Shown: one piece after another, positions 5,229 to 43,660 of the stretch
How the letters are laid out: the number at the start of each line of letters is the position of its first letter
Numbering within the stretch: position 1 is the stretch's first letter
NCBI GenBank assembly: GCA_017470485.1
Contig: JAFUYQ010000015.1
Coordinates: 1-64,000 of the forward strand
Direction: 5' to 3'
DNA from: Synergistaceae bacterium
GTDB lineage: Bacteria; Synergistota; Synergistia; Synergistales; Aminobacteriaceae
DNA: 64,000 nt
The notes under the pieces: model-generated
Database searches by the model: none
The model's input: the letters and a program-made list of their open reading frames with translations, nothing else
Told to the model about the DNA's origin: nothing
Position numbers and translations under genes: made by a program

Positions 5229-6487
5229 TGATTAAACTGTTATTTGTTAGAAGGTTTATGCCGCTGTTTCTGACGCAGTTTTTGGGGGCGTTCAACGATA
5301 ACTTCTTCAAGAGCGCGTTAATGATGTTAATCACTTACCGTCTCGGTGATGCCGCCGGTGTTGATTCGAGAATACTGGTCAACGCCGCCGCAGGAGTATT
5401 CATTCTTCCGTTCTTTGTTTTTGCGCCGACAGCAAGCGACTTGGCCGACAAATACGACCGTTCCGACTTGATGAGATGGGTGAAGTTCGCCGAAATTGTA
5501 GTGATGTCGGGAGCGGCACTGGGGTTCTGGCTCGGCAACGTTTGGCTTTTGATGGCTGTGCTATTTCTGATGGGGGCGCAGTCAGCGTTCTTCAGTCCGG
5601 CGAAATACAGCATACTTCCTCAGCATTTGCGCGAGGACGAATTAATCGCAGGAAACGGATTGATTCAAATGGGAACGTACTTGGCGATTTTGACGGGGAC
5701 GATAGCCGGAGGATTAATGATTTTGAGGGACAACGGTATATATTGGGTAGGCGGTCTTGCGGTAACGATAGCCGCGCTTGGCTGGCTCTTCTCAATGTTC
5801 ATACCCCCAACGAAACCCATTGCCCCGAATCGAACAGTGTCATTCAGAATCGTCAAGAGAACCGCTGAGATGTTCAGGGAAGTTTACCCGATGAGGCGTG
5901 TATTCAGCTCAATGCTGGCAATATCATGGTTCTGGCTTGTGGGGTCAGTGTTCCTCGCTCAGTTCCCGACGTATTCAAGAATGATTCTGGGAGCTGACGA
6001 GAGCGTAGCAACTAGCTTCCTTGCGATATTCTCATGCGGTATCGGGATAGGCTCAATGTTCTGCGACTCGCTACTCAAAGGCAAGGTGTCATCAAAATAT
6101 GTTCCTGCCGCTGCCTACGGAATAGCGATAGCGAGCGTCCTGCTGTGGTACGTCAGCAACCGTCCGCCCGTCCCAGAAGGTACACCGATAGTGGGGGCTT
6201 GGGAATTTTTCACGAGGCCTGAGAACTTTATGATAACGGCGTGTCTTTTTGTGATAGCGTTCTGCGGAGGATTGTATATAGTTCCGCTTTACGCCGTAAT
6301 GCAGACTGAGGCCGGCGATAAAGTCTCAGGGGTCATAGCCTGCTCAAACATAACCGACTCGCTTTTCATGGCCGCCGCTGCTGTCGGAGCGAGTATTCTG
6401 ATTTCAATGGGCATTAGTATTCCTCAGTTGTTCCTGACTATGGGGCCGACTACGTTTATTGTGGGACTGCTGGTCGGACTGCTTTAG
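5228..6487 (+). CDS. MFS transporter, LplT (lysophospholipid transporter)-like
   Basis: A 419-residue polytopic membrane protein of the major facilitator superfamily with about 12 hydrophobic segments. The opening FLTQFLGAFNDNFFKSALMM and the later QSAFFSPAKYSILPQ are hallmarks of the LplT / Aas-N-terminal group, which flips lysophospholipids inward for re-acylation. The acyltransferase domain often fused to this module is absent here, so the partner enzyme must be elsewhere if the assignment holds. The start overlaps the cysS stop (TAATG). MFS assignment is firm; the substrate is inferred from the family. Confidence 0.85.
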   Translation: MIKLLFVRRFMPLFLTQFLGAFNDNFFKSALMMLITYRLGDAAGVDSRILVNAAAGVFILPFFVFAPTASDLADKYDRSDLMRWVKFAEIVVMSGAALGFWLGNVWLLMAVLFLMGAQSAFFSPAKYSILPQHLREDELIAGNGLIQMGTYLAILTGTIAGGLMILRDNGIYWVGGLAVTIAALGWLFSMFIPPTKPIAPNRTVSFRIVKRTAEMFREVYPMRRVFSSMLAISWFWLVGSVFLAQFPTYSRMILGADESVATSFLAIFSCGIGIGSMFCDSLLKGKVSSKYVPAAAYGIAIASVLLWYVSNRPPVPEGTPIVGAWEFFTRPENFMITACLFVIAFCGGLYIVPLYAVMQTEAGDKVSGVIACSNITDSLFMAAAAVGASILISMGISIPQLFLTMGPTTFIVGLLVGLL

Positions 6488-6499
6488 AGGGCGTGAATT

Positions 6500-7616
6500 A
6501 TGCCTGAGAGAAAACCTGCATTCACAATTAACGATGTAATTAAGGAAATAGAAGAAGCCACGCTGATGGACGATTATTTCATGCGTGCTTTCTTTGAGGA
6601 TAATATTTCAGGAACTCAAATAGTACTCCGAATAATTATGGACAAGCCTGACTTGATAGTTATGTCAGTGAGTGTTCAGGAAGATTTCAGGGGATTTGAC
6701 GATTCGCACGGAGTAAGGTTTGATGTTTACGCTGTTGACTCTGAAAACCGCCAGTACGATATAGAGTTTCAGAACAAGCCTGAAGGTGCCAGCCCTCAAC
6801 GAGCTGATTTTAACAGTGCAATGCTGACAGTAAGGACGCTGAAGAAATCGGAGAATTATTCTGTTCTGTCTGAGCGCGAACGTGTTGTAATCTTCATCAC
6901 AAAGACAGATGTGCTTAAAGGCGGACTTCCCATTTACAGGGTTGAGCGCGTAATCAGGGAGACAGGAAACCCGTTTAATGACGGTACACGGATAATTTAT
7001 GTCAACACCTCGCACAAAGATACCGGTACTGCACTAGGGAAACTGGTTCATGATTTCAGGTGCGGCAATCTTCGGAAATTGTATTATACTGAACTGGCTG
7101 AACAAGCAGATAACGCTAGAAAGAAAGCTGAACAACAGCTAGAAAGAAGTTATATCTTAAAGAAGGTAGGTGAAAATCGTTACAGAGAGTTAAGCAAATC
7201 AACTTGTGTTTATAATTTATATATTGGCTAAAATGTTTCCAGCTTCTGAAGCGAGAACCAAGAGGGAAGTGAATATACCCGTACGTTAGCGGGGAATTTA
7301 AGCCTTTGGAGCGTCATATCAAACGTGAGTAGCGGTTACATAGCGAAAGCGGGCGCGATGAATGAGGAAGGGAGCAGAAAAGTTAATATTAGGCGATAAG
7401 CTGTTAATTTTTTATAAGTCTTCTGTAACGGTAAATAGAGTGTCAGCTATTGAAGCAATGAAGGAATACGAGCGGGCTGAAGGAAAAGCCGAAATGCAGA
7501 AAAGTATCGCAACAGGCTTGATAAAACTCGGTCAAATAGCGTTTGAAGACATCGCAAAGGTCTGCCATCTTACATTGGAACAGGTCAAAAATCTTGCGGC
7601 AACAGTAAACGCATAA
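6500..7616 (+). pseudogene. Rpn/PD-(D/E)XK-family nuclease, interrupted by an IS605-type relic
   Basis: The first part (from ATG 6500, frame ending at 7231) is an Rpn-family nuclease: MDDYFMRAFFEDN, DVYAVDSENRQYDIEFQNK with the family's D...ExQ catalytic motif, and KLVHDFRCGN. After about residue 220 the sequence loses similarity. The usual C-terminal tail reappears in another frame near 7445-7616 (EAMKEYERAEGKAEMQKSIA ... LTLEQVKNLAATVNA). Between the two halves lies the 3' end of a tnpB gene. So this is one gene split by an insertion, not two genes. The core with the catalytic motif is still translatable, so residual activity is possible. It follows the transporter by 12 nt. Confidence 0.78.
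7170..7430 (+). mobile_element. IS605-type relic: tnpB 3' end with omega-RNA-like sequence
   Basis: Between the two halves of the Rpn gene, 7250-7399 is open in the frame LAGNLSLWSVISNVSSGYIA ... KAGAMNEEGSRKVNIRR, ending at TAA 7397. This resembles the C-terminus of IS200/IS605-family TnpB proteins of a lineage different from the intact copy at 60003. Its DNA (CCTTTGGAGCG, then GATGAATGAGGAAG further on) shares the scaffold pattern of the two other IS605-type ends in this window. A short GCTTC-T-GAAGC hairpin at 7242-7252 could be left over from an element end. Outer limits are approximate because neither flank is sharp. Confidence 0.6.
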
Positions 7617-7749
7617 CCGTAAAATACGCAGAACGGCTCTCCGCTGAAATAACTTAACGGGGAGCTGTTCTTCTCATGAACGCACTGAAATAAAATTTCA
7701 CAAAGGAGGTAAAATATTTACGGACACTCACGAACTGGAGGAATAATTT

Positions 7750-8202
7750 TTGCCTTACACGATTAAAGACATCTCGGAACTCACAGGATTACCGCCCTCA
7801 ACACTGAGATATTACGATAAACAGGGATTACTCCCCAATCTCAGGCGCGATGGGAACAATATACGAATATTCACTGACGAAGATTACAGACATTTACGAT
7901 TAATCGACTGCCTCAAAAAATCAGGACTGTCGATTAAGGATATAAGAAATTTCATAGATATGGCCGGTCAGGGAGACAAAGCACTAACAGGAAGGCTCGA
8001 AATTTTCAGGAAAAGAAGGGAAATCCTGAAGCAGGAACTTTCTGACTTGCAGACCGTTCTTGATGTTATAGAGTATAAATGCTGGTACTATGAGCAGGCA
8101 TGTGATGCAGGCACTGAGTCAGCCGTAAAAAATTTACCTGACTCAGACCTCCCCGAACAATTCAGAAAGGCAAAGAAACATCTTTACTGCACTAAACGCT
8201 AA
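7750..8202 (+). CDS. MerR-family transcriptional regulator
   Basis: A 150-residue regulator with the MerR winged helix at the N-terminus (YTIKDISELTGLPPSTLRYYDKQGLLP), then RLIDCLKKSGLSIKDIRNFI and a dimerisation coiled coil (about residues 85-120). The C-terminal effector region is short and holds Cys at CWYYEQACDAG and a final Cys, without a clear metal-site pattern. MerR proteins with this Tyr-Tyr-Asp pattern often regulate stress or redox genes. The start is TTG 7750, chosen because GGAGG lies 8-9 nt upstream. It is convergent with the nitroreductase gene, whose end overlaps it by 4 nt. The target is unknown. Confidence 0.88.
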   Translation: MPYTIKDISELTGLPPSTLRYYDKQGLLPNLRRDGNNIRIFTDEDYRHLRLIDCLKKSGLSIKDIRNFIDMAGQGDKALTGRLEIFRKRREILKQELSDLQTVLDVIEYKCWYYEQACDAGTESAVKNLPDSDLPEQFRKAKKHLYCTKR

Positions 8203-8777
8203 TCAATAATCCTGAATCTTCCTTCATGAATCTTCTTGGGGGAAGGTTCAGCACCGTCAATATAACCCAGAAGGACAAAACATCTTGCCGTATACCCTTC
8301 AGGAATATGCCAGTCCTCAAGAATTTTTCTGCCCTCAGGATTATCGAATGTCTCCTCGCCCCTCGCTATTATGCACGATGAAATACCCAATGATTTCGCC
8401 GCAAGCGTCATGTTCTCGGCACAGCAGAAAGCATCAGCAATACTGTAAAGAAATTTCTCCGGCCCGAACACTGCACACACTGACGGCGCACCGTAAAAGC
8501 CGCTCTTTATCGAATGGTCATCAATAATACTCGGCTGTTCATCAGATACATACGCTCCAAGAAGTGCTGACCTGTCGAATTTAGCTATGTTGAGTTTTCC
8601 CAGTTTCTCGGCGAGTTCAGCATTGTTTACGCCGATGATGATACTTCCCTGACGGCCTCCTGCATTAGGCGCACGAAGTCCTGCCTCTATGACCGTCTCA
8701 AGGTCAGCCCGTGAAATCTGCTTGCTCTGATACTTCCTTACTGAATGTCTCGTTCTTATTGCTTCCATTACGTCCAT
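8199..8777 (-). CDS. Nitroreductase-family protein of the RiPP cassette
   Basis: A 192-residue FMN-dependent nitroreductase-family enzyme. The N-terminal phosphate/FMN motif is RTRHSVRKYQSKQIS, followed by LRAPNAGGRQ and the C-terminal ARCFVLLGYIDG. I chose ATG 8777 because AAGGAG precedes it and the family motif begins about 10 residues in; upstream in-frame codons run into the radical SAM gene. It starts two bases after the radical SAM stop, so the two are translationally coupled. In this setting it may oxidise or reduce the modified peptide, as nitroreductase relatives do in other RiPP pathways, but a general flavin reductase is possible. Confidence 0.85.
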   Translation of the reverse strand: MDVMEAIRTRHSVRKYQSKQISRADLETVIEAGLRAPNAGGRQGSIIIGVNNAELAEKLGKLNIAKFDRSALLGAYVSDEQPSIIDDHSIKSGFYGAPSVCAVFGPEKFLYSIADAFCCAENMTLAAKSLGISSCIIARGEETFDNPEGRKILEDWHIPEGYTARCFVLLGYIDGAEPSPKKIHEGRFRIID

Positions 8778-13790: not shown

Positions 13791-14057
13791 ATGGGTAAAT
13801 CAACAGCGGATACTGCCGGAGGAGCTACAGCACTTGGAATTGTAGGTGCTATGCTAGGTGGGCCGTTTGGAGCTCTTGCAGGCGCAGCGATAGGAGGACT
13901 GATTGGCGGTAAGAATATCATGAACGTTGTAGTGGGAGCTATTGAGAAAAGATCTGGTGAACTTTCAAGAAATAGCCGTATTCCCGAAGACAAGCGTGAA
14001 AAATTTGCTGAGATGCACGACCGCCTGAAGGAACAGCGTGAACGCAATAGGCATTAA
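13791..14057 (+). CDS. Small glycine-zipper membrane protein, 88 residues
   Basis: The core (residues about 9-42) is a glycine-zipper pair of hydrophobic helices: ALGIVGAMLGGPFGALAGAA then IGGLIGGKNI. The tail is hydrophilic and highly charged (EDKREKFAEMHDRLKEQRER). GxxxG membrane segments of this sort occur in small bacteriocins, holin-like proteins and in outer-membrane glycine-zipper proteins. No signal peptide cleavage site or double-glycine leader is evident. AGGAGG precedes the start. It sits between two other small genes; function unknown. Confidence 0.75.
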   Translation: MGKSTADTAGGATALGIVGAMLGGPFGALAGAAIGGLIGGKNIMNVVVGAIEKRSGELSRNSRIPEDKREKFAEMHDRLKEQRERNRH

Positions 14058-14231: not shown

Positions 14232-14265
14232 GCTCCCCTAACCGCTTCAGGGGAGCATAATTTTT
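14232..14265. terminator. Bidirectional terminator between small-gene cassette and mtnA
   Basis: GCTCCCCT and AGGGGAGC form a perfect 8-bp stem with a 9-nt loop, followed by a T run on the plus strand. The mtnA stop codon lies inside the hairpin, so it may serve both converging transcripts. Confidence 0.8.
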
Positions 14266-15314
14266 CTCAAACTCTCGGTGTAAGGCGGTCTTGCAATCCC
14301 GAACTCCGTAACAATTCCCGTAATCAATTCATGTTCCGTAACATCGAACGCAGGATTATAGACATTCACGCCGTCGGGAGCCATTCGCTTTGAGTACCAA
14401 ATCTCCGTAACTTCCTCAGGCTGTCTCTGCTCAATGACGATTTCCGCGCCCGTCTTAATGTTCATGTCTATCGTTGAAGCAGGACAGAAAACATAGAACG
14501 GTATTCCGTAATGCCGAGCGAGAATAGCGAGGCCTGAAGTGCCGATTTTGTTGCAGCAGTCGCCGTTAGCGGAAGCCCTGTCGCACCCTACGAATACAGC
14601 ATTAACCCAGCCGTTTTTCATGACCTGAGAGGCCATATTGTCGCATATTAACGTTGTGTCCACCCCGTCAGCAAGAAGTTCAAACGCTGAGAGCCTCGCC
14701 CCTTGAAGCAGGGGTCTTGTCTCATCGCAGTAGACTCTGAAATTTATTCCCCGTTCGCGCCCCAAGTGTATCGGTGCTAACGCCGTGCCGTATTTTGAGG
14801 TGGCTAACTGTCCGGCGTTGCAGTGAGTGAGTATTCCGTCGCCGTTGTGAATAAGGGTTAAGCCGTGTTCGCCTATGAGCCTGCAAGTTTCGGTGTCTTC
14901 GGATTTTATTGCGACGGCTTCAAGGCGTAAAAGCTCTTTGATTTCGGGAACGGTCTTGTCGTTATTGAGGGCTGCGATTTTTTCGAGGCGTTTCAAAGCC
15001 CATGATAGATTAACGGCTGTGGGTCTTGCGGAATTAAGATAGTCTTTAGCCTTTTTGAACTTTTCGAGGAATGAGGGGTAATCGTCCGTGTCAATCTTCA
15101 GGGCTTCGAGGTACAGTCCGAACGCTGCGGCAATTCCGATAGCCGGTGCGCCTCTGACCTGAAGGGTGTAGATTGCGTTCCAGATGTCATGAATGTCATT
15201 GAGGTGAAGAATGTTTATTGAGGCCGGTAATTTTGTCTGGTCGAGGATTAACAGCGAGCGTTCATTTTCATCAAGCGATACGGTTTCGTAAGTTAGGATT
15301 GCATTATTGTTCAT
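14247..15314 (-). CDS. mtnA: S-methyl-5-thioribose-1-phosphate isomerase
   Basis: A 355-residue enzyme of the eIF-2B-like family that converts methylthioribose-1-phosphate to methylthioribulose-1-phosphate in methionine salvage. Recognisable segments are LQVRGAPAIGIAAAFG, ILTHCNAGQLATSKYGTALA, TLICDNMASQVM and VGCDRASANGDCCNKIGTSG, which hold the catalytic Cys and Asp. I chose ATG 15314 (MNNNAILTYETVSL) because CAGGAGA precedes it; a longer frame would add 37 atypical residues. No other methionine salvage gene is adjacent, so it may serve another aldose-phosphate isomerisation. Confidence 0.92.
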   Translation of the reverse strand: MNNNAILTYETVSLDENERSLLILDQTKLPASINILHLNDIHDIWNAIYTLQVRGAPAIGIAAAFGLYLEALKIDTDDYPSFLEKFKKAKDYLNSARPTAVNLSWALKRLEKIAALNNDKTVPEIKELLRLEAVAIKSEDTETCRLIGEHGLTLIHNGDGILTHCNAGQLATSKYGTALAPIHLGRERGINFRVYCDETRPLLQGARLSAFELLADGVDTTLICDNMASQVMKNGWVNAVFVGCDRASANGDCCNKIGTSGLAILARHYGIPFYVFCPASTIDMNIKTGAEIVIEQRQPEEVTEIWYSKRMAPDGVNVYNPAFDVTEHELITGIVTEFGIARPPYTESLRKIMLP

Positions 15315-15371
15315 GGTATTCTCCTGTTGACATTGTTGGGAATGATTATAATTCCTTGAAAACAATACGGC

Positions 15372-15398
15372 TATTCTATCAGATACCGTGATAGAATA
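15372..15398. promoter_or_regulatory. Palindrome carrying two divergent extended -10 elements
   Basis: TATTCTATCA, a 7-nt spacer and TGATAGAATA form a perfect 10-bp inverted repeat. Read outward on each strand, each arm is TGATAGAAT, an extended -10 (TGN plus TAGAAT). The right arm would drive the gene at 15432 and the left arm mtnA. The symmetry also makes it a likely operator for a dimeric repressor. Confidence 0.55.
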
Positions 15399-15431
15399 AA
15401 TTTTACCGACATAACGGGGAGGCAACCAGTC

Positions 15432-16562
15432 ATGACAGACAACAGACTATCCGAAAATGAAATTCTACATATGATTAACGATACAGGCCGGCTCTCAGCC
15501 CTCAAAAATGCTGGCGACCTTTCAAGTTTCGCACTTTCCGCACAGCAAAGCAATATTCTGGCGAACGATGTCGAGTTCTGGAAGTGGATAGCAAGAAATT
15601 ATCATAACTCAGGGATTTTCAGTTCCCCTTCCTCAATGCTAGATTACATCTCACAGGGGTCATCAAACGAAGAATGGCTGAGCCGGATAATTCAGGGCAA
15701 GGGCTACGAATGGGACTACATGAGCCAGCAGAGAGGAAGCGTAAAGAATCTATTTGACGCTTTCGAGGCCGGAGATGTTGCCAACAGAATGGGAAGCGAT
15801 GTTACTCAACAAAATATCCTGACAGGAGAAAGCACAGAATACCAGATGAAAGCCTACACCAGCAGCAACACTCCAGACCTTCATAACACATCAACTGACA
15901 TCAGAGTGGTAACTAACTCAGAGAAAGCAGGAGCAGTACAGCGGAAAGGATACGAGGTTGAGACGTTTCAGGATAAAGACTCAATCATTGCTAAAAGGAA
16001 TCAACGTTTAGAAAGTATTAAGCGCGGTGAAGTTCAAACCTCATACACCCTCAAATCCACCGCCGGCCTCATGGCTAAGGCAGGACTAATCGGCTGTGCA
16101 ATCGGAATAACAGTTGAGGCTATAGCTTCATACCGAGCGTGGAAAAACAAACTGCTAACTGATGATGAGTATCTCATCGAAATTCTGAAGTCGGGCGGAA
16201 ATGCAGGTCTTACAGCCGCAGGTACAGCAGGAATTATGCTTCCTGTCTCGTCAGCGATAACCGCCGCCGGAATGTCATCGCTCATTACAATTCCTGTGGC
16301 GTTCGTTGTAGGCTCAGCGGTCAACAAAATTATTGCGCCGTGTTTCGGACGCGGAGAGTACAGAAAAATTCTGTCTCAGGCAAAGTATTATCAGAGCCTC
16401 GAAAATCTCTATGACGATATGATTTCAAGCATGGAAGTTTCTTCTGAACACTTGCTGGGGTTCATTCAGGGCGTTAAAGCTCAGCGCAGCTTCCACGAGA
16501 ACGCGAAACGAGTCAGCATGAGCCTCAATAAAGACCTTGAGGCACTGTATAATTCAATCTAG
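15432..16562 (+). CDS. Nuclease-like (D...QxK) protein with glycine-rich membrane region
   Basis: A 376-residue protein I cannot assign to a named family. Residues 1-110 are soluble and mixed. Residues 120-141 (RMGSDVTQQNILTGESTEYQ then MKAY) contain D123, Q138 and K140, a D-x(14)-QxK arrangement as in the PD-(D/E)XK nuclease fold. Residues about 208-300 are hydrophobic and Gly/Ala-rich (GLMAKAGLIGCAIGITVEAI, AGLTAAGTAGIML, ITIPVAFVVGSAV), likely two to three membrane helices. The C-terminus is helical and charged. The same order of parts occurs in the protein at 42221. GGGGAGG precedes the ATG. It is followed 11 nt later by the Sel1 gene. Confidence 0.72.
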   Translation: MTDNRLSENEILHMINDTGRLSALKNAGDLSSFALSAQQSNILANDVEFWKWIARNYHNSGIFSSPSSMLDYISQGSSNEEWLSRIIQGKGYEWDYMSQQRGSVKNLFDAFEAGDVANRMGSDVTQQNILTGESTEYQMKAYTSSNTPDLHNTSTDIRVVTNSEKAGAVQRKGYEVETFQDKDSIIAKRNQRLESIKRGEVQTSYTLKSTAGLMAKAGLIGCAIGITVEAIASYRAWKNKLLTDDEYLIEILKSGGNAGLTAAGTAGIMLPVSSAITAAGMSSLITIPVAFVVGSAVNKIIAPCFGRGEYRKILSQAKYYQSLENLYDDMISSMEVSSEHLLGFIQGVKAQRSFHENAKRVSMSLNKDLEALYNSI

Positions 16563-16573
16563 GAGGCGATACA

Positions 16574-18397
16574 ATGCAGTTAGTACCTGTTGAGGATATG
16601 GATTTCTTCGCACAGCAGTCATCGGGGAAACTCAACATGATTATTTCCGGCATGACAGCTTTAATGAATGACAATGACAGCAAAGTTGCACAGCTTGAAG
16701 GGCAGAACTGGTTTCAGCGAATGTGCAGGACGATAACGGGCAAGAACAAGGCAACTCGGGACGAAATTCAGCGCAATCACGACAAGATTAACGCTTACAT
16801 GTCTGAGGCGATTGCCGAACTCTACAACAGAAATCTGATTGACCACGAGATTATATTAAGTCTCGGAACTCAGATTAATGAGCTGTACGCGGATCACATT
16901 CAGTTGAAACAGATGTTAGGGGCGTTTGCGGCCAAACTGAACGAGAAGATTGAGAGCGTTGATAATTTTCACATGCTCATGGAGGAAATCTCGCAGGGCG
17001 TTTACAGTTCGGGCAATAAGCTGGCGGAAATCTGCAAGGTAATCTCACAGCTTGACCACAGGACGCTTAACGACAGCAGGAAACTTGACATAGTGAGGCG
17101 AGGTCTTGTCAGTCAGGGAATATTGAGCGATGAGCAGATTGGATTGAGGGAATATCTTGCGCAGGTTGTTGAGATTTCCTCTGATGATGCCGGACGTATA
17201 TACCTTGAGCTTGGCACGCTGAAGGGGAACTTCATGGCGAATATCATTTTGGCGATGATGAGCGACTATCATTTTCTGCCCGACATGGCGAGGAAGATGA
17301 AGAACAAGCCTGCGATGATTGCCGATGTGATTGAGGCCGGAAGACTTGATGAGGGCGTAACGCTTTCGTTGAGCGAGATTTACGATGACTTCATCAACAG
17401 CAAGATTGAGGCGGTGAATAGTCTTGTGCCTGTTGTGATGTTTGACGAGAACACGACAGACCCAGCTGTTATTCGTGAAGCTGCTGAGCAGGGCATTCCC
17501 GAAGCGCAGGATAAGCTGGGCAGAATGTATTACGCAGGTAAAAACGGTGTTGAGCAGGATTATGCCAAAGCCGTTGAATGGTATCGCAAGGCTGCCGAAC
17601 AGGATAATACACACGCTCAGAATGAATTAGGCTTTATGTATTATGCTGGTCGTGGTGTAGAACAGGATTATGCCCAAGCCGTTGAGTGGCTTCGTAAAGC
17701 TGCTGAACAGGGATATGCAACAGCTCAAGACAGCTTAGGTTTTATGTACGAAAATGGCTATGGTGTAGAAAAGGATTACGAAAAGGCGTTTGAATGGTAT
17801 AACAAAGCCTCTGAGCAGGATAATGCCAGTGCTCAAAAGAGCTTAGGCGATATGTATCGCTTTGGTAATGGTGTCGAAAGAAACCATGTAAAAGCTGTTG
17901 AATGGTATCGCAAAGCCGCTGAACATGGTAATGCTAGTGCTCAAAATGTCTTAGGAGTTATGTATCAAGATGGGGAAGGCGTTGAGAGAGATTATGAGCA
18001 GGCAGTGTATTGGTATCGCAAGGCCGCTGAACAAGGAAACGTATTTGCCCAAGATAACTTGGCTGAGATGTACTATGACGGTAAGGGTATTGCTCAAGAT
18101 TACTCTAAAGCTGCCGAATGGTATCGTAGAGCAGCTGAACAGGGGAACTCCCATGCTCAGAATCGTTTGGGGCTTATGTATGATACGGGAAAAGGTGTCG
18201 AAGAAGATGATGCCAAAGCGGTTGAATGGTATCGTAAAGCTGCCGAACAAGGGTACAAAGTAGCTCAATACAATTTGGGACTTATGTACAAAAACGGTGA
18301 GGGCGTGAGCGTAAATTACGATGAGGCTCGCAAATGGCTAAGTAAAGCTGCTGAGCAGGGTTATGAGGACGCTAAGAAAGCCCTAAGCAATCTGTAA
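16574..18397 (+). CDS. Sel1-repeat protein with novel helical N-terminal domain
   Basis: A 607-residue protein. The N-terminal half (to about residue 295) is helical and soluble, with no family I recognise (MQLVPVEDMDFFAQQSSGKL ... IELYNR-like helices). From about 297 onward there are eight 36-residue Sel1-like repeats (consensus AAEQGxxxAQxxLGxMYxxG then GVxxDYxKAVEWYRK) and a short cap. Sel1 arrays are protein-interaction scaffolds. No signal peptide is present, so it is cytoplasmic. AGGAGG precedes the ATG and the gene is co-transcribed with the membrane/nuclease-like partner at 15432, suggesting that they act together. Confidence 0.85.
   Translation: MQLVPVEDMDFFAQQSSGKLNMIISGMTALMNDNDSKVAQLEGQNWFQRMCRTITGKNKATRDEIQRNHDKINAYMSEAIAELYNRNLIDHEIILSLGTQINELYADHIQLKQMLGAFAAKLNEKIESVDNFHMLMEEISQGVYSSGNKLAEICKVISQLDHRTLNDSRKLDIVRRGLVSQGILSDEQIGLREYLAQVVEISSDDAGRIYLELGTLKGNFMANIILAMMSDYHFLPDMARKMKNKPAMIADVIEAGRLDEGVTLSLSEIYDDFINSKIEAVNSLVPVVMFDENTTDPAVIREAAEQGIPEAQDKLGRMYYAGKNGVEQDYAKAVEWYRKAAEQDNTHAQNELGFMYYAGRGVEQDYAQAVEWLRKAAEQGYATAQDSLGFMYENGYGVEKDYEKAFEWYNKASEQDNASAQKSLGDMYRFGNGVERNHVKAVEWYRKAAEHGNASAQNVLGVMYQDGEGVERDYEQAVYWYRKAAEQGNVFAQDNLAEMYYDGKGIAQDYSKAAEWYRRAAEQGNSHAQNRLGLMYDTGKGVEEDDAKAVEWYRKAAEQGYKVAQYNLGLMYKNGEGVSVNYDEARKWLSKAAEQGYEDAKKALSNL
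17462..18370 (+). repeat. Tandem 108-nt repeats encoding Sel1 units
   Basis: Eight head-to-tail units of about 108 nt (one with an extra codon) encode the Sel1 array. Phrases such as GAATGGTATCG and GCTGAACAG recur in each unit, so recombination between units could alter copy number. Confidence 0.8.
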
Positions 18398-18424: not shown

Positions 18425-18462
18425 AAATCTCCCCCTGTCTAACGCAAGGCAGGGGGATTTTT
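18425..18462 (+). terminator. Rho-independent terminator after the Sel1 gene
   Basis: CCCCCTGTCT and AGGCAGGGGG form a 10-bp stem with one wobble pair and a 6-nt loop, followed by ATTTTT. Confidence 0.82.
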
Positions 18463-39284: not shown

Positions 39285-40475
39285 ATGGCAAAAATAAAAT
39301 TCAACCTAAACTTCGGCGGCGAACAGATCAGAACTCTCGATGATCTGCGCGATAACTTTTCCATTGAGGACGTTCTTGACGTTTACAACAATGGTCTACT
39401 CGTCAAATGGCTTGATGTTCACAATCACAAGAACGAACTCGAACAAGTCAAAGCTGTTCAGGCTACTGACGCTCGCGGCATTCTGACTGAGCTAATCAAA
39501 ATTTTCGGCATTTCTGATGACCCTTCTGAAATTGAGGACAGCCTCTCTGTTCTCGACTACTTGGAGGAGCGCAAGAAGGTTCACGAAGATATGAAAGCTC
39601 ACGGCATTTCCGACCATGAGAAACTCAGAAAGGAACGCGATGAATTAGCCCGGCAGGTTGAGGAGCTGAAAGAACTTCTTGAAGCAAAAGCCCCTGAAGC
39701 TGAAATCCACGAAGAAGCCCCCAAGCCAGCAAAGAAAAGCTATGATGACCTTGTGCAGGAAATCATCGACAATCATCAGGACTTGAACCACATCTACGAC
39801 TGCCTCGACGCTATCACTACCGATTATCCCGACATTCTCAAGGAAAAATATTCGGAGTTGTTCGACAGGCTATATGCAGAAGCTGCTCACGCGCTTTATG
39901 CACTTTTCGCTCATCACGCAACAAGGCCATATTACGTGTTGAGTGACGGAGAATTATTGCTTGATAGGGAAAGACGTAGATATTTATACCCTCCTATTGA
40001 GAATTGTTTTTATGGACGAGATTTTCAAAAAGGCACTCTGAATAATGAATGGGAAGATTGGAAAATAAAGCTGGACGGATATGAACAAATTGAAGCTCAC
40101 AGACTCTTGCCATCTGTTCTCGAAAAATTACGCTTTATCAACACACTCAATAAAGTTTCGATAGGGATATTTGGAACAAGCGAGTTTCAGGTAGTAAAGC
40201 ACCCATACTTGAGAGTTTTTAGTGATGAAGCACACTACGGATGTGAAGAATTAAGTAAATGGCGCGTTATTGAGACTGCTGACAAAAAGTTTATGCTTTT
40301 TCACGCATACCCAACTATTTGGGGAAATACTGCAGGTACGTACACTCATCATCTTGTTTACGTTCTACAAGATTTTCGCATTGCATTTCCTGTGTTGAAT
40401 GGCATAGACATACAACCTACAAAATATAAAGGACACTGTTTCTACTCTGGTTTCTGTTACATGGAGGCAAGGTAA
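39285..40475 (+). CDS. Modular coiled-coil protein with variable C-terminus, 396 residues
   Basis: The N-terminal module (MAKIKFNLNFGGEQIRTLDD, LRDNFSIEDVLDVYNN, GLLVKWLDVHNH ... ILTELIKIFGIS) covers residues 1-80. From memory it resembles a short N-terminal module seen on diverse multidomain proteins of Selenomonas-like and Synergistota genomes. A coiled coil (about 95-135) and a helical segment (150-205) follow. The last 190 residues are unrecognised, contain many aromatic residues, and are encoded by distinctly more A/T-rich DNA than the first half. No membrane segment or signal peptide. AAAGGAG precedes the ATG. Confidence 0.72.
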   Translation: MAKIKFNLNFGGEQIRTLDDLRDNFSIEDVLDVYNNGLLVKWLDVHNHKNELEQVKAVQATDARGILTELIKIFGISDDPSEIEDSLSVLDYLEERKKVHEDMKAHGISDHEKLRKERDELARQVEELKELLEAKAPEAEIHEEAPKPAKKSYDDLVQEIIDNHQDLNHIYDCLDAITTDYPDILKEKYSELFDRLYAEAAHALYALFAHHATRPYYVLSDGELLLDRERRRYLYPPIENCFYGRDFQKGTLNNEWEDWKIKLDGYEQIEAHRLLPSVLEKLRFINTLNKVSIGIFGTSEFQVVKHPYLRVFSDEAHYGCEELSKWRVIETADKKFMLFHAYPTIWGNTAGTYTHHLVYVLQDFRIAFPVLNGIDIQPTKYKGHCFYSGFCYMEAR

Positions 40476-40496
40476 TAAATAATGGAGGTGAATAAA

Positions 40497-40724
40497 ATGA
40501 CAAACTTCAAAAACGATAAAGAACAGTTTGAACGAAAAGCGAAGTTTTACACCCAAAATTACAGAAAAATGAGAGCAAGATTTTATGCGCTTGCGCATAA
40601 AGTTTCTGAGATAGCGGAAAGACCTTCAATAACGCGAGAAGACCGAGTTGCCCTCAATGAAGCTATTTTGTCAGCTTCAGGTATGAAAACTAGAGAATAC
40701 CATCACCATGCGGCAAGCAACTAA
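40497..40724 (+). CDS. Small basic helical protein, 75 residues
   Basis: An unrecognised helical protein beginning MTNFKNDKEQFERKAKFYTQ. I chose ATG 40497 because GGAGGTG sits about 8 nt before it; an in-frame ATG at 40482 would place its own codons over that ribosome site. It is A/T-rich like the end of the preceding gene. Its 3' end overlaps the AAA ATPase gene by 17 nt, so the two are coupled. Confidence 0.68.
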   Translation: MTNFKNDKEQFERKAKFYTQNYRKMRARFYALAHKVSEIAERPSITREDRVALNEAILSASGMKTREYHHHAASN

Positions 40725-42234
40725 AAAACTTTTAGCGTCATATCTCGACTCGCTCTGCCCGATTCTCTACATCAACCATTCGGATTTTGCTGACGTTGAC
40801 GCGGAATTAACACGCCTTGCTGAACACGATATGCGCTTCATCGAGTTCAATAACGCTCTTGGGGCTTTGAACTTTGAGGACAAGCACCAGTTACAGCAGT
40901 GGGATCTCGCGGAATTTCTTAACGCCGTTATGGACGAGGGGTTTGACGAGGAACACGAACTTGTCATTATCCTTAAAGATGTTCACGAAAGCATGAACGA
41001 TCCGAAAGTTGTCGCCCTCCTGCGGCGTATCGCTGAAATGACGCTTGAGCGTGATGATTACCGAGCGAAAGTCATCATTATTGCTTCAAATGTTGTCATT
41101 CCGTCTGAGCTTGAAAATTTCATTACCCTTATGGACGTTCCTTTGCCTGATGATGAGGAGATAAGGGACTGTATTCACAGTTTTGCTGAAGATGTCGCTG
41201 TCGATATCGGTGAAAAAGAATTTGAAGAGCTTGTGTTTTCCCTTAAAGGTTTAAGCGCGTTCCAGATAAAACAGGTGCTTTCTCTCGCTTATCAGGGTAA
41301 CGGACGGCTTGACGCTTCTGACAGGAAATTTATTCTTAGCGAAAAAGAACAGGTCATCAAAAAATCAGGCATTCTTGAGATGATGAATTTCAAGGAAACT
41401 ATTGATGACATTGGCGGTCTTGACAGGCTGAAAAGCTGGCTGGATAGGAAAGCTAAAATTTTCTCCTCCCTCGATAAAGCTATTAAGTTCGGCGTTGACG
41501 TTCCAAGCGGCATTTTGATTCTCGGTATGCCCGGCTGCGGTAAAAGCCTCGCCGCTAAAGCTACTTCCACTCTCTTCAAAGTTCCGTTAATACGTCTTGA
41601 TGTCGGTCGTCTCATGGGTAAATATGTCGGTGAATCTGAAGGCAATATGCGCCGTGCATTGAAACTCTCGGAAACTGTAAGCCCCTGCGTTTTGTGGATT
41701 GATGAGATTGAGAAGGCTTTTGCCGGCATTGGCGGCGGTTATGGTGAAGTTGCTACTCGACTGTTCGGGCATTTCCTGACCTGGATGCAGGAAAAAGAAA
41801 GCACAGTTTTTATCGTTGCGACTGCTAATGACATCTCTAAACTTCCGCCGGAATTTTTACGCAAGGGACGCTTTGATGAATTATTCTTCGTTGACCTCCC
41901 GACTGAAAGAGAACGCAGAAAAATTCTCGAAATACATTTAAGGAAGCGCGGAAAGCTCAACAACAGAATTAACCTTGACACATTGAGCAAGAAAACTAAA
42001 GGCTTCAACGGCGCGGATCTTGAGGGAATTGTTAAGGACGCTATCGAAACAGCCTTTATTGACGGGACTGAAACTATCACAACTGAGCTTTTACTCAAGA
42101 GCTTTGAGGAGGCAAAATCAATCTCTGTAATTCAAAAGGAAAAAATAGAAGCCCTGCGTAAAGATTTGAAGAAATATGACATTAAGCCGGCAAGTTCTGA
42201 GGCAAGAGAGTCAACTGATGATGGCCGAAGCTGA
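40708..42234 (+). CDS. Ycf46-like AAA ATPase
   Basis: A 508-residue ATPase. The N-terminal 230 residues look like a degenerate P-loop domain lacking Walker A (ILYINHSDFADVDAELTRLA, LVIILKDVHE). The active AAA domain follows: IDDIGGLDRLKSWLDRK, Walker A GMPGCGKS (273-280), pore-like MGKYVGESEGNMRRAL, Walker B VLWIDEIEKAF (D332, E333), ATANDISKLPPEFLRKGRFD with the arginine finger. This layout is that of Ycf46/YjoB-type AAA proteins, possible unfoldases or chaperones. It is coupled to its neighbours by overlaps of 17 nt and about 14 nt. Confidence 0.88.
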   Translation: MRQATKKLLASYLDSLCPILYINHSDFADVDAELTRLAEHDMRFIEFNNALGALNFEDKHQLQQWDLAEFLNAVMDEGFDEEHELVIILKDVHESMNDPKVVALLRRIAEMTLERDDYRAKVIIIASNVVIPSELENFITLMDVPLPDDEEIRDCIHSFAEDVAVDIGEKEFEELVFSLKGLSAFQIKQVLSLAYQGNGRLDASDRKFILSEKEQVIKKSGILEMMNFKETIDDIGGLDRLKSWLDRKAKIFSSLDKAIKFGVDVPSGILILGMPGCGKSLAAKATSTLFKVPLIRLDVGRLMGKYVGESEGNMRRALKLSETVSPCVLWIDEIEKAFAGIGGGYGEVATRLFGHFLTWMQEKESTVFIVATANDISKLPPEFLRKGRFDELFFVDLPTERERRKILEIHLRKRGKLNNRINLDTLSKKTKGFNGADLEGIVKDAIETAFIDGTETITTELLLKSFEEAKSISVIQKEKIEALRKDLKKYDIKPASSEARESTDDGRS

Positions 42235-43660
42235 AGTCATTACGCGTGAAGAAGGTCAACAAATAGCCTCGACTATCTCAGATTTTATGAGCGGTTACGC
42301 GGAGAAATCTGAAAGCGTCTCTGACAGTGAATGGCTTTTGACGCAATTCAAGGAGTCAATGCCTGAGAAAAACGAAGCGGAAATCACACAAATACGCGAT
42401 GAAATCATTGACGGTATTCAATCTCAAGAGGCCGCTAAAGAATCATTACATTCAGCGTTATCACAATGCCGTAGTAAAGAAAGCTGGTTCGCTCAGGAAA
42501 TGAGGAAAGCTGCTTCGGGCATGAGTTCCATTGAGGCAGCGACATATCTTCAAAGCCTTGATGAGGCTGTTAATACCGCAAATCAACAGCTTATAGACAC
42601 TATCACAACTAAGAGCGGAGCTGTAAGCAAAAATCAAAATCTCGACGGTTTCATTGCGGAAGATTATCACGCTCAAACTTTTAATCTGAACGCCGCCGCG
42701 AGAGGAAGCCATTATCGTGCGCGTGTCCTCAAACCTAATGGCAAAAGCTACACAAAAAATTCTGTTGATATTGTCATTGATAACCTCGACACAGGGAGAA
42801 TTTCCCGAAGGTATCAAGCTAAATACGGCGCGACAATCGAACGTTCGCGGGCAATGTATAAAGCTGGAAATTATCGAGGACAGCGTCTATTAACCCATGA
42901 AGAGCGGATTGTCGCTCCAGACGGTACAACGAGTAATATCCTAAGCAAGCAACAGGCTAAAGAATTACAGGAAAAGGCTCAAAGCGGAGAATGGCAGAAT
43001 CTCAACTGGAATGAATATGCCATGAAAGATATTGCCGCTGGGATCGCGAAGAATGTTGGAATAGCCGGAGCGCAAGGATTGTTAATCGGAACAGGATTTG
43101 AACTCGCTAGACAAATTTACGGCGATAAGGGAATTGACAGTGAAAAACTAATTGAGACAGGTTTGGAAACTGGAGCGGATTTTGCGATGAAAGTCGCTGT
43201 CGCTGGAGGATTAAAAGTAGCTTCCGAGAAGGGATTTATAAAATTTATCCCTAAAGACACTCCCACAAATGTCTTTACAACAATAGCTTTTGTAACCGTT
43301 GAAAATGTAAAAGTTCTTAGTCATGTGGCAATTGGAGAACTTACGCCGATTGAGGGCTTTGAAAAAATCGAGCAAGTTGCTACTTCATCAGTTTGCGGTT
43401 TAGCTTCAGCAGCAAAAGGAGCCACAATAGGCTCTAAAGTCCTCTCATGTTTTGGCCCTGCAGGAGCGGCTATCGGAGGGTTCGCAGGAGGCACAATCGG
43501 TTATATGGCAGGGTCAGGAGTCGCGACAGCGGTTGTGAAAGGCTATCAAAAAGTTCGCAGTGTTATTGTTGAGCATGTCGTGAAGCCTATAGTCAATACC
43601 GCAAAAAGAGCTTGGGAAAACGCAAAATCATTCGTAAGCAATATTTTCTCATGGCTTTAG
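42221..43660 (+). CDS. Nuclease-like (D...QxK) protein with glycine-zipper membrane region
   Basis: A 479-residue protein of no named family. Residues 1-150 are helical (EEGQQIASTISDFMSGYAEK). Residues 180-205 (SVDIVIDNLDTGRISRRYQA then KYGATIERS) contain D183, Q199 and K201, like a PD-(D/E)XK active site with Q in place of E. Residues about 265-330 and 375-430 are Gly/Ala-rich hydrophobic segments (GIAGAQGLLIGTGFELA; GAAIGGFAGGTIGYMAG), probable membrane or pore helices. ATG 42221 or 42218 is chosen; both overlap the AAA gene end. Homologous layout to the protein at 15432. Confidence 0.75.
   Translation: MAEAEVITREEGQQIASTISDFMSGYAEKSESVSDSEWLLTQFKESMPEKNEAEITQIRDEIIDGIQSQEAAKESLHSALSQCRSKESWFAQEMRKAASGMSSIEAATYLQSLDEAVNTANQQLIDTITTKSGAVSKNQNLDGFIAEDYHAQTFNLNAAARGSHYRARVLKPNGKSYTKNSVDIVIDNLDTGRISRRYQAKYGATIERSRAMYKAGNYRGQRLLTHEERIVAPDGTTSNILSKQQAKELQEKAQSGEWQNLNWNEYAMKDIAAGIAKNVGIAGAQGLLIGTGFELARQIYGDKGIDSEKLIETGLETGADFAMKVAVAGGLKVASEKGFIKFIPKDTPTNVFTTIAFVTVENVKVLSHVAIGELTPIEGFEKIEQVATSSVCGLASAAKGATIGSKVLSCFGPAGAAIGGFAGGTIGYMAGSGVATAVVKGYQKVRSVIVEHVVKPIVNTAKRAWENAKSFVSNIFSWL

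What the first reader, a model, noticed from the sequence alone, without database searches (positions are those of the whole stretch)
15432..18397. Second, paralogous locus: same nuclease-like/membrane layout paired with a Sel1 protein
The 376-residue protein here and the 479-residue one at 42221 align in the order D...(T)G...YQxK, then a Gly/Ala membrane block with IG...E followed by K...LIE/YLIE. D to Q spacing is 15 and 16 residues. Yet one locus carries an AAA ATPase and the other a Sel1-repeat partner with a novel N-terminal domain. Two copies with different partners suggest a family of exchangeable effector modules.
Basis: partly seen in the sequence, partly recalled or inferred. Interest (0 to 1): 0.75.

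Follow-up and report, generated by a model that had tools for sequence, protein, structure and literature searches.

The report
Membrane-anchored nuclease with coiled-coil sensor partner
Two neighbouring genes encode a DNA-cutting-type enzyme predicted to sit in the cell membrane and a dedicated partner protein with interchangeable sensor tails; the pair travels together across distant bacteria and is probably an undescribed, rare cell-defence system, although no activity has been tested.

Summary
The 376-aa protein (family A) and the 479-aa protein (family B) share, in the same register, an E...D...QxK active-site pattern (D to Q 15 and 16 residues) followed by a membrane segment. The membrane similarity is real: hhalign score 46.5 against at most 28.8 in 150 local column shuffles. 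The nuclease parts align only as a motif, not significantly.

A is not one of two recent paralogues with swapped partners. It has its own scattered family (Synergistota, Firmicutes, Planctomycetota). In all 14 testable loci A sits beside a protein with the same ~285-aa coiled-coil/helical N-terminal domain, once fused to it. Sel1 is only one of several tails on that partner. B goes with a CDC48-like AAA ATPase in 9 of 9 loci, an arrangement already described in extended CoCoNuT Type III-A operons. None of ten other A genomes has B.

AlphaFold2 gives A a PD-(D/E)XK-type core; E93, D123, Q138 and K140 are invariant in 14 sequences. My best reading is a membrane-anchored PD-QXK nuclease controlled by a dedicated sensor/regulator, probably for defence. 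The anti-phage role is inference. No curated family covers A or the partner domain.

The parts
15432..16562 (+). family A gene, 376 aa: N-terminal helical part, PD-QXK nuclease-like domain, membrane segment, C-terminal helix
   Evidence: ORF; homologues at 79, 49, 45% in Synergistota and 41-57% in Firmicutes, 26% in a planctomycete; no Pfam, PADLOC, PHROGs or curated NCBIfam family
15660..16031 (+). [quoted passage not shown]
   Evidence: AlphaFold2 with 14 sequences, pLDDT mostly 66-90 in this part
15696..15716 (+). GKGYEWD motif with E93 (putative active-site acid on the first helix)
   Evidence: invariant in the 14-sequence alignment A3; E93 and D95 also in L064, where the motif reads GKGAEWD
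15798..15800 (+). D123, putative metal ligand
   Evidence: invariant
15843..15851 (+). Q138-M-K140, the QxK motif on a beta strand
   Evidence: Q and K invariant; strand 134-139 in the model
16050..16346 (+). membrane segment, residues 207-305, three long hydrophobic helices; first part (192-272) similar to family B
   Evidence: model helices 207-238, 244-279, 283-305, hydropathy, hhalign and shuffles
16574..18397 (+). partner gene, 607 aa
   Evidence: ORF 11 bases downstream; partner conserved in 14 of 14 testable loci
16574..17440 (+). constant N-terminal domain of the partner (residues 1-289): long coiled coil (about 17-140), then an eight-helix domain (about 149-284)
   Evidence: AlphaFold2 with 11 sequences, mean pLDDT 76; alignment A5
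17471..18394 (+). Sel1 repeats, the variable tail of the partner
   Evidence: Pfam Sel1 E 1e-96, 8 stretches; other tails in relatives
18430..18457 (+). terminator-like hairpin that closes the two-gene unit
   Evidence: 11 pairs, 7 G-C, then TTTTT; 4 terminator-like sites found where shuffles give 3.0, so only suggestive
42221..43660 (+). comparator, family B protein (479 aa); not part of this two-gene unit
40708..42234 (+). comparator's partner, CDC48/IetA-like AAA ATPase; not part of this two-gene unit
   Evidence: Pfam AAA 3.7e-29, PADLOC IetA 8e-29

Best explanation
The two genes form one functional unit. Gene 1 is a membrane-anchored nuclease of the PD-(D/E)XK superfamily with the Mrr-type QxK variant of the active site (E93, D123, Q138, K140); its C-terminal half inserts in the membrane. 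Gene 2 is its dedicated partner. A constant coiled-coil plus helical N-terminal domain binds and controls the nuclease, and a variable repeat tail (Sel1 here) senses a trigger or docks another protein. On the trigger, probably phage infection, the nuclease cuts DNA close to the membrane, either incoming phage DNA or the cell's own. Shown: the two genes occur together and co-diverge, one fusion exists, the residues are conserved, the predicted core is of nuclease type. Inferred: catalysis, DNA as substrate, control by the partner, sensing by the tail, the anti-phage role.
For: Partner present in 14 of 14 testable loci across three phyla, fused in Ruminococcus YE71. Co-divergence 0.72, 0 of 2000 permutations. 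E, D, QxK invariant in 14 sequences down to 22% identity. AlphaFold2 order alpha 77-101, beta 109-113, 124-128, 134-139, 158-161, alpha 166-171, beta 176-178, alpha 182-197. In VIA, the rows whose match starts and ends inside the nuclease part (about 43-201) are all PD-(D/E)XK nucleases: AvaII, HinP1I, BstEII, EndoMS, PA, and the MmcB-like 3dnx; LmuA also overlaps it. Among the named viral models in the Foldseek list, restriction endonucleases, nucleases and VRR-NUC proteins recur. [quoted passage not shown] Defence hints: a SIR2 gene beside the pair in L064 (PADLOC Aga_SIR2 3e-13; Pfam SIR2_2), a weak HEC-07 match beside the fused form in L017, Cro/CI-type regulators next to L017, L018, L021, patchy presence (4 of 185 genomes of the phylum) at a site whose content differs in relatives.
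Against: Structure matches are weak: Foldseek has nothing at E <= 0.001 and VIA nuclease rows are Z 4.6-5.0, below the level the tool calls reliable. The membrane half of the model is of low confidence. The best-matched known context of the similar family B was judged an inactivated nuclease by others (PMC11090510). Only one of the A loci has a clear known defence gene beside the pair; no A homologue was found in phages, plasmids or viral contigs.
Confidence: 0.5

Rival explanations
1. The nuclease fold is degenerate and only binds nucleic acid; the working part is the membrane segment (pore or anchor), controlled by the partner.
For: Lopez-style reading of family B by the CoCoNuT authors: a C-terminal glycine zipper and an inactivated PD-(D/E)xK fold (PMC11090510). 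Some B proteins have lost the whole nuclease part and the first membrane helix yet keep the adapter, the glycine zipper and the AAA gene, so in B the nuclease is dispensable.
Against: E, D, Q and K are the residues that never change in A (14 of 14) and in B (5 of 5), while the rest of the domain diverges to 22% identity; binding alone would not need exactly this set. No nuclease-less A was found.
Confidence: 0.2
2. A toxin and its immunity or carrier protein used against neighbouring bacteria: a nuclease with its own membrane-crossing segment, neutralised by the Sel1 protein.
For: Nuclease toxins with membrane-entry segments and Sel1 or TPR repeats in polymorphic toxin systems are known (PMC3482391); a toxin next to a small operon partner is their usual layout.
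Against: The nuclease is N-terminal and the membrane segment C-terminal; no export domain (LXG, WXG, PAAR, RHS) in the proteins or beside them in the loci read. The partner is longer than the effector, is constant over three phyla and is fused to the nuclease in one species, which an immunity protein is not expected to be.
Confidence: 0.12
3. A house-keeping membrane protein pair (for example envelope stress or DNA segregation) whose nuclease-like core is a remnant.
For: G+C content of the stretch is like its surroundings; no phage, plasmid or integrase genes next to it in the window.
Against: Present in only 4 of 185 genomes of the phylum and 2 of 397 of the family of Mediterraneibacter, in distant phyla, at a variable site: an accessory, horizontally moving pattern.
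Confidence: 0.1

Closest known systems
Family B: 'bacteriocin-like glycine zipper' protein next to a SpoVK/CDC48-like AAA ATPase in extended CoCoNuT Type III-A operons (PMC11090510, section 10)
   Same: PD-(D/E)XK-type core with E, D, QxK; membrane segment after it, with real profile similarity over ~80 residues; accessory, partner-dependent
   Different: A has no N-terminal adapter of B and no C-terminal glycine zipper match; different partner (coiled coil plus Sel1 instead of AAA); no VWA, CARF, PP2C or kinase genes nearby; the nuclease parts do not align significantly
SNIPE (membrane-bound DUF4041-GIY-YIG nuclease; PMC13190303)
   Same: A nuclease held at the membrane, with a variable region thought to set the target; a model for how A could act
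   Different: GIY-YIG nuclease, not PD-(D/E)XK; single protein; N-terminal membrane anchor; no coiled-coil/Sel1 partner
Mrr and BisI families (PD-QXK subgroup of PD-(D/E)XK; PMC11347163)
   Different: soluble restriction enzymes with DNA-recognition domains; no membrane segment; no such partner
Zorya and Kiwa (membrane-associated defence systems named in PMC13190303)
   Same: defence acting at the membrane; multi-gene unit with an effector
   Different: no shared domain found here with ZorA/ZorB (motor) or KwaA/KwaB; the VIA rows for ZorA have rmsd near 30 and are not evidence
Sel1/SLR repeat proteins
   Same: partner tail is a standard Sel1 array
   Different: Sel1 is only the variable tail; the constant part is a coiled-coil/helical N-domain without a known family

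Membership tests
[quoted passage not shown]
   secondary-structure order in the AlphaFold2 model, pLDDT about 66-90 there
PD-(D/E)XK nuclease superfamily (A) | D ... (D/E/Q)xK active site on the strands | tested here: met
   D123, Q138, K140 and E93 invariant in 14 sequences; the QxK variant as in Mrr/BisI
PD-(D/E)XK nuclease superfamily (A) | significant fold match to a solved member | tested here: inconclusive
   Foldseek no E <= 0.001; VIA Z 4.6-5.0 to AvaII, HinP1I, BstEII, EndoMS, LmuA, PA
PD-(D/E)XK nuclease superfamily (A) | metal-dependent nuclease activity | not testable with these tools
   needs a biochemical assay
Family B (glycine zipper/AAA effectors) | significant sequence-profile similarity over the whole protein | tested here: not met
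   only the 192-272 segment aligns; nuclease part Prob 0.4%
Family B (glycine zipper/AAA effectors) | adjacent CDC48/IetA-like AAA gene | tested here: not met
   no AAA gene next to A in the window or the other loci read; partner is the coiled-coil protein
CoCoNuT Type III-A extension | McrB-type GTPase, VWA, CARF, PP2C and kinase genes around | tested here: not met
   no such neighbours in the window around 15.4 kb; they do surround plasmid-borne B
SNIPE | DUF4041 and GIY-YIG domains | tested here: not met
   no Pfam match of A; different fold
Septu (PtuA) | PtuA ATPase and PtuB HNH nuclease | tested here: not met
   the only PADLOC hit of the partner is PtuA1 at 9.4e-7 through its repeats (483-524), a chance repeat match; no ATPase domain
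TerB domain (partner, residues 149-284) | Pfam TerB match or TerB fold | tested here: inconclusive
   only the distant L023 partner scores, below the cut-off (E 0.0039); hhalign to a true TerB (L052) finds nothing; no TerB in the fold lists
Polymorphic toxin/immunity pair | export domain plus C-terminal toxin plus immunity gene | tested here: not met
   no export domain found by Pfam in A or its neighbours checked; nuclease N-terminal
Sel1 repeat family (partner tail) | Sel1 repeats above Pfam cut-off | tested here: met
   314 bits against a cut-off of 30.7

The most novel reading that the evidence does not exclude
A new two-gene anti-phage system in which a membrane-inserted PD-QXK nuclease is held and released by a dedicated coiled-coil partner whose exchangeable tail (Sel1, TPR, beta-propeller-like) sets the trigger, and which shares a nuclease-plus-membrane-helix module with the AAA-linked glycine-zipper effectors of CoCoNuT operons.
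Probability: 0.3. Interest if true: 0.7.

Novelty: new variant of a known kind. Interest (0 to 1): 0.55.

Why it matters
It defines a two-gene family that no curated library used here covers, and links it, through a shared nuclease-plus-membrane-helix module, to effectors known only as 'glycine zipper' proteins in complex restriction operons. Membrane-held nucleases that act as phage DNA enters were established only recently (SNIPE, PMC13190303). If A works like that, it would be a second, unrelated nuclease fold used for the same trick, with a partner whose tail can be swapped. The invariant E-D-QxK set also questions the published view that the related B proteins are inactive, which one pair of point mutants can settle.

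Tried and rejected
Recent paralogy in one genome: rejected, each family is old, separate and has its own partner. Partner's N-domain as TerB: tempting because L023 has a weak TerB match and L052 carries a real TerB gene near a distant B relative, but not supported for the window protein. PtuA/Septu: repeat artefact. PHROG 8741 and MerG/MotX/AlgK hits of the partner: the best stretches lie in the Sel1 part. Foldseek and VIA top rows for A (MgtE, FtsX, complex I subunit, Tim22): helical membrane bundles, not used as evidence. VIA for the partner: only generic helical matches, best Z 6.1. Viral-contig scans with A and with the partner: no relatives; plasmids and phages: none for A. Two comparisons printed (Af against Bw, Bw against L023) were stale output of a failed hhalign run; I repeated them, where they failed again, and they are not used. 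No sign of foreign base composition and no tRNA in the window.
Full report
What is there. The finding covers two genes on the + strand, 15432-16562 (376 aa, family A) and 16574-18397 (607 aa), 11 bases apart, with a terminator-like hairpin at 18430-18457. They lie between mtnA (14247-15425, opposite strand) and a DEAD-type helicase-like ORF (19038). The window belongs to a genome in a phylum of about 185 held genomes; the closest relatives found by sequence are Synergistaceae and Pyramidobacter. Neither A nor the first 290 residues of the second protein has a convincing match in Pfam, PADLOC, PHROGs or NCBIfam; the second protein ends in Sel1 repeats.

The pairwise BLASTP is not significant (E 0.47). 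Because Gly/Ala-rich helices can align by composition, I reversed B and shuffled B columns within blocks of 20: real score 46.5, reversed 21.9, best of 150 shuffles 28.8. The similarity of the membrane segment is therefore not composition. Common descent of that segment is the simplest reading; convergence on a common membrane hairpin cannot be excluded. The nuclease parts alone give Prob 0.4%; what they share is the pattern E, D, QxK with D to Q spacing 15 and 16, invariant in each family.

What is A? AlphaFold2 with 14 sequences gives a helix 77-101, strands 109-113, 124-128, 134-139, 158-161, helix 166-171, strand 176-178 and helix 182-197, with block pLDDT about 66-90, followed by three long hydrophobic helices 207-238, 244-279, 283-305 at lower confidence. 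E93 lies on the first helix, D123 at the start of the second strand, Q138 and K140 on or just after the third: the PD-(D/E)XK arrangement with the QxK variant described for Mrr and BisI (PMC11347163). Fold comparison is supportive but weak: Foldseek has no significant hit; in the VIA list, the rows whose match starts and ends inside the nuclease part (about 43-201) are all nucleases of this superfamily (AvaII, HinP1I, BstEII, EndoMS, PA, and the MmcB-like 3dnx), with LmuA overlapping it, at Z 4.6-5.0; among the named models of the viral library, restriction endonucleases, nucleases and VRR-NUC proteins recur.

Relatives and partner tally. One scan of 84,980 species genomes with the A profile found 13 loci, of which three are the Synergistota loci already found; two further loci came from a phylum search around the planctomycete, one of them a fragment. 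Leaving out the contig-cut copy (L010) and the fragment (L065), 14 distinct loci including the window can be judged: window, L008, L009, L011, L012, L014, L015, L017, L018, L019, L020, L021, L023, L064. In all 14 the neighbouring gene carries the same N-terminal domain; in L017 it is fused to A in one 920-aa ORF, and in L064 it lies upstream instead of downstream. For L023 the evidence is an HMM match of 1.8e-5 and for L064 one of 4.7e-14 with hhalign Prob 97%. Distances of A and of the partner domain correlate (0.90 over 14 loci, 0.72 over the 12 closer ones; 0 of 2000 permutations reach this).

The tails. Sel1 repeats end the partner in the window, L008, L009, L011, L012, L017, L020 and L021; L023 has TPRs; L064 has a sub-threshold beta-propeller match and L018 looks similar by eye; L014 stops after the constant domain; L015 and L019 have tails without a match. 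L018 and L021 carry an extra small Sel1 gene downstream. AlphaFold2 of the constant domain gives a long coiled coil (59-140) and an eight-helix domain (149-284), without a convincing known fold.

Family B. Close B proteins lie next to the CDC48/IetA-like AAA gene in the window, L003, L004, L040, L041, L048 and L049; the shorter, nuclease-less forms L042, L043, L044 do too. L003 and L004 are the same plasmid-borne cassette and count once, giving 9 loci. On enterobacterial plasmids the cassette is VWA, B, AAA, CARF (DUF1887), VWA, PP2C, kinase, which is the second Type III-A CoCoNuT extension described in PMC11090510. Its authors call the B protein a glycine-zipper protein with an inactivated PD-(D/E)xK fold. 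My alignment shows E147, D183, Q199 and K201 invariant in five B proteins from 37 to 69% identity, which speaks for an active QxK site; this is inference until assayed. The nuclease-less B forms keep the N-terminal adapter and the glycine zipper and lack the nuclease and the first hydrophobic stretch; A matches B but not these forms. The shared unit of A and B is thus the nuclease together with the membrane segment just after it.

Are they paralogues with exchanged partners? No genome among the ten other A genomes tested has B. A was found in 4 of 185 genomes of the phylum and B (with fragments) in 9 of 183. Both are patchy. The window genome holding one of each is most simply two separate acquisitions. 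In close relatives the gene next to mtnA on this side is a different small pair (L067-L069), so the site is variable.

How it probably works. Shown: a conserved two-gene unit, invariant active-site residues, a predicted nuclease core followed by predicted membrane helices. Inferred: the partner's constant domain binds A (suggested by adjacency, co-divergence and the fusion); its tail senses or docks; the nuclease cuts DNA near the membrane on a trigger. Defence is favoured by the patchy spread over three phyla, by a SIR2 gene beside the pair in L064, by Cro/CI-type regulators next to three loci and by the working model of SNIPE, a membrane-held nuclease that cuts phage DNA as it enters (PMC13190303). 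One SIR2 neighbour is a single case and I did not run a neighbourhood control, so I put the anti-phage role near even odds or below.

Limits. E-values from one-to-one profile comparisons are not database E-values. Profiles are shallow (Neff 2-3). The genome scan used two short peptide patterns, so distant A members are missed and the tally favours close ones. The papers searched are open-licence only; absence of a description there does not prove novelty.

Noticed in passing
L064:5698-10477: Planctomycete locus with partner, A and a SIR2-like gene in a row on one strand; the gene order of A and partner is inverted relative to all others.
   Followed up: partly
L009:1637-3910 and 6350-8650: Two GTPase genes (MMR_HSR1; the first with a DUF697-type tail) upstream of A, and a weak DUF697-like tail (E 0.0017) on the Sel1 partner of the same locus: possible membrane-GTPase link.
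   Followed up: partly
L042:4458-5492, L043:5415-6473, L044:3725-4771: Shorter family B proteins that lack the nuclease part but keep both ends and the AAA neighbour: the nuclease is a removable module in B.
   Followed up: partly
window 42221-43660: Family B, published as carrying an inactivated nuclease fold, has an invariant E-D-QxK set in five proteins; the published inactivity deserves a test.
   Followed up: partly
window 39285-40475 and 40482-40724: A 396-aa protein with N-terminal motif AKIKFNLNFGGEQIRTLDDLRDNF and an 80-aa ORF precede the AAA gene; shorter relatives with the same N-terminus stand near the AAA gene in L041, L042 and L043. No known family.
   Followed up: no
L052:188-2826: A TerB gene (Pfam 3.8e-9) two genes upstream of a distant relative of family B.
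   Followed up: partly
L017:12688-14118: Gene after the fused A-partner protein has a weak PADLOC HEC-07 match (E 4e-7).
   Followed up: no
window 13791-14057: Small 88-aa glycine-zipper-like protein between ribE and mtnA; ribE and mtnA are adjacent without it in the relatives L067-L069.
   Followed up: no
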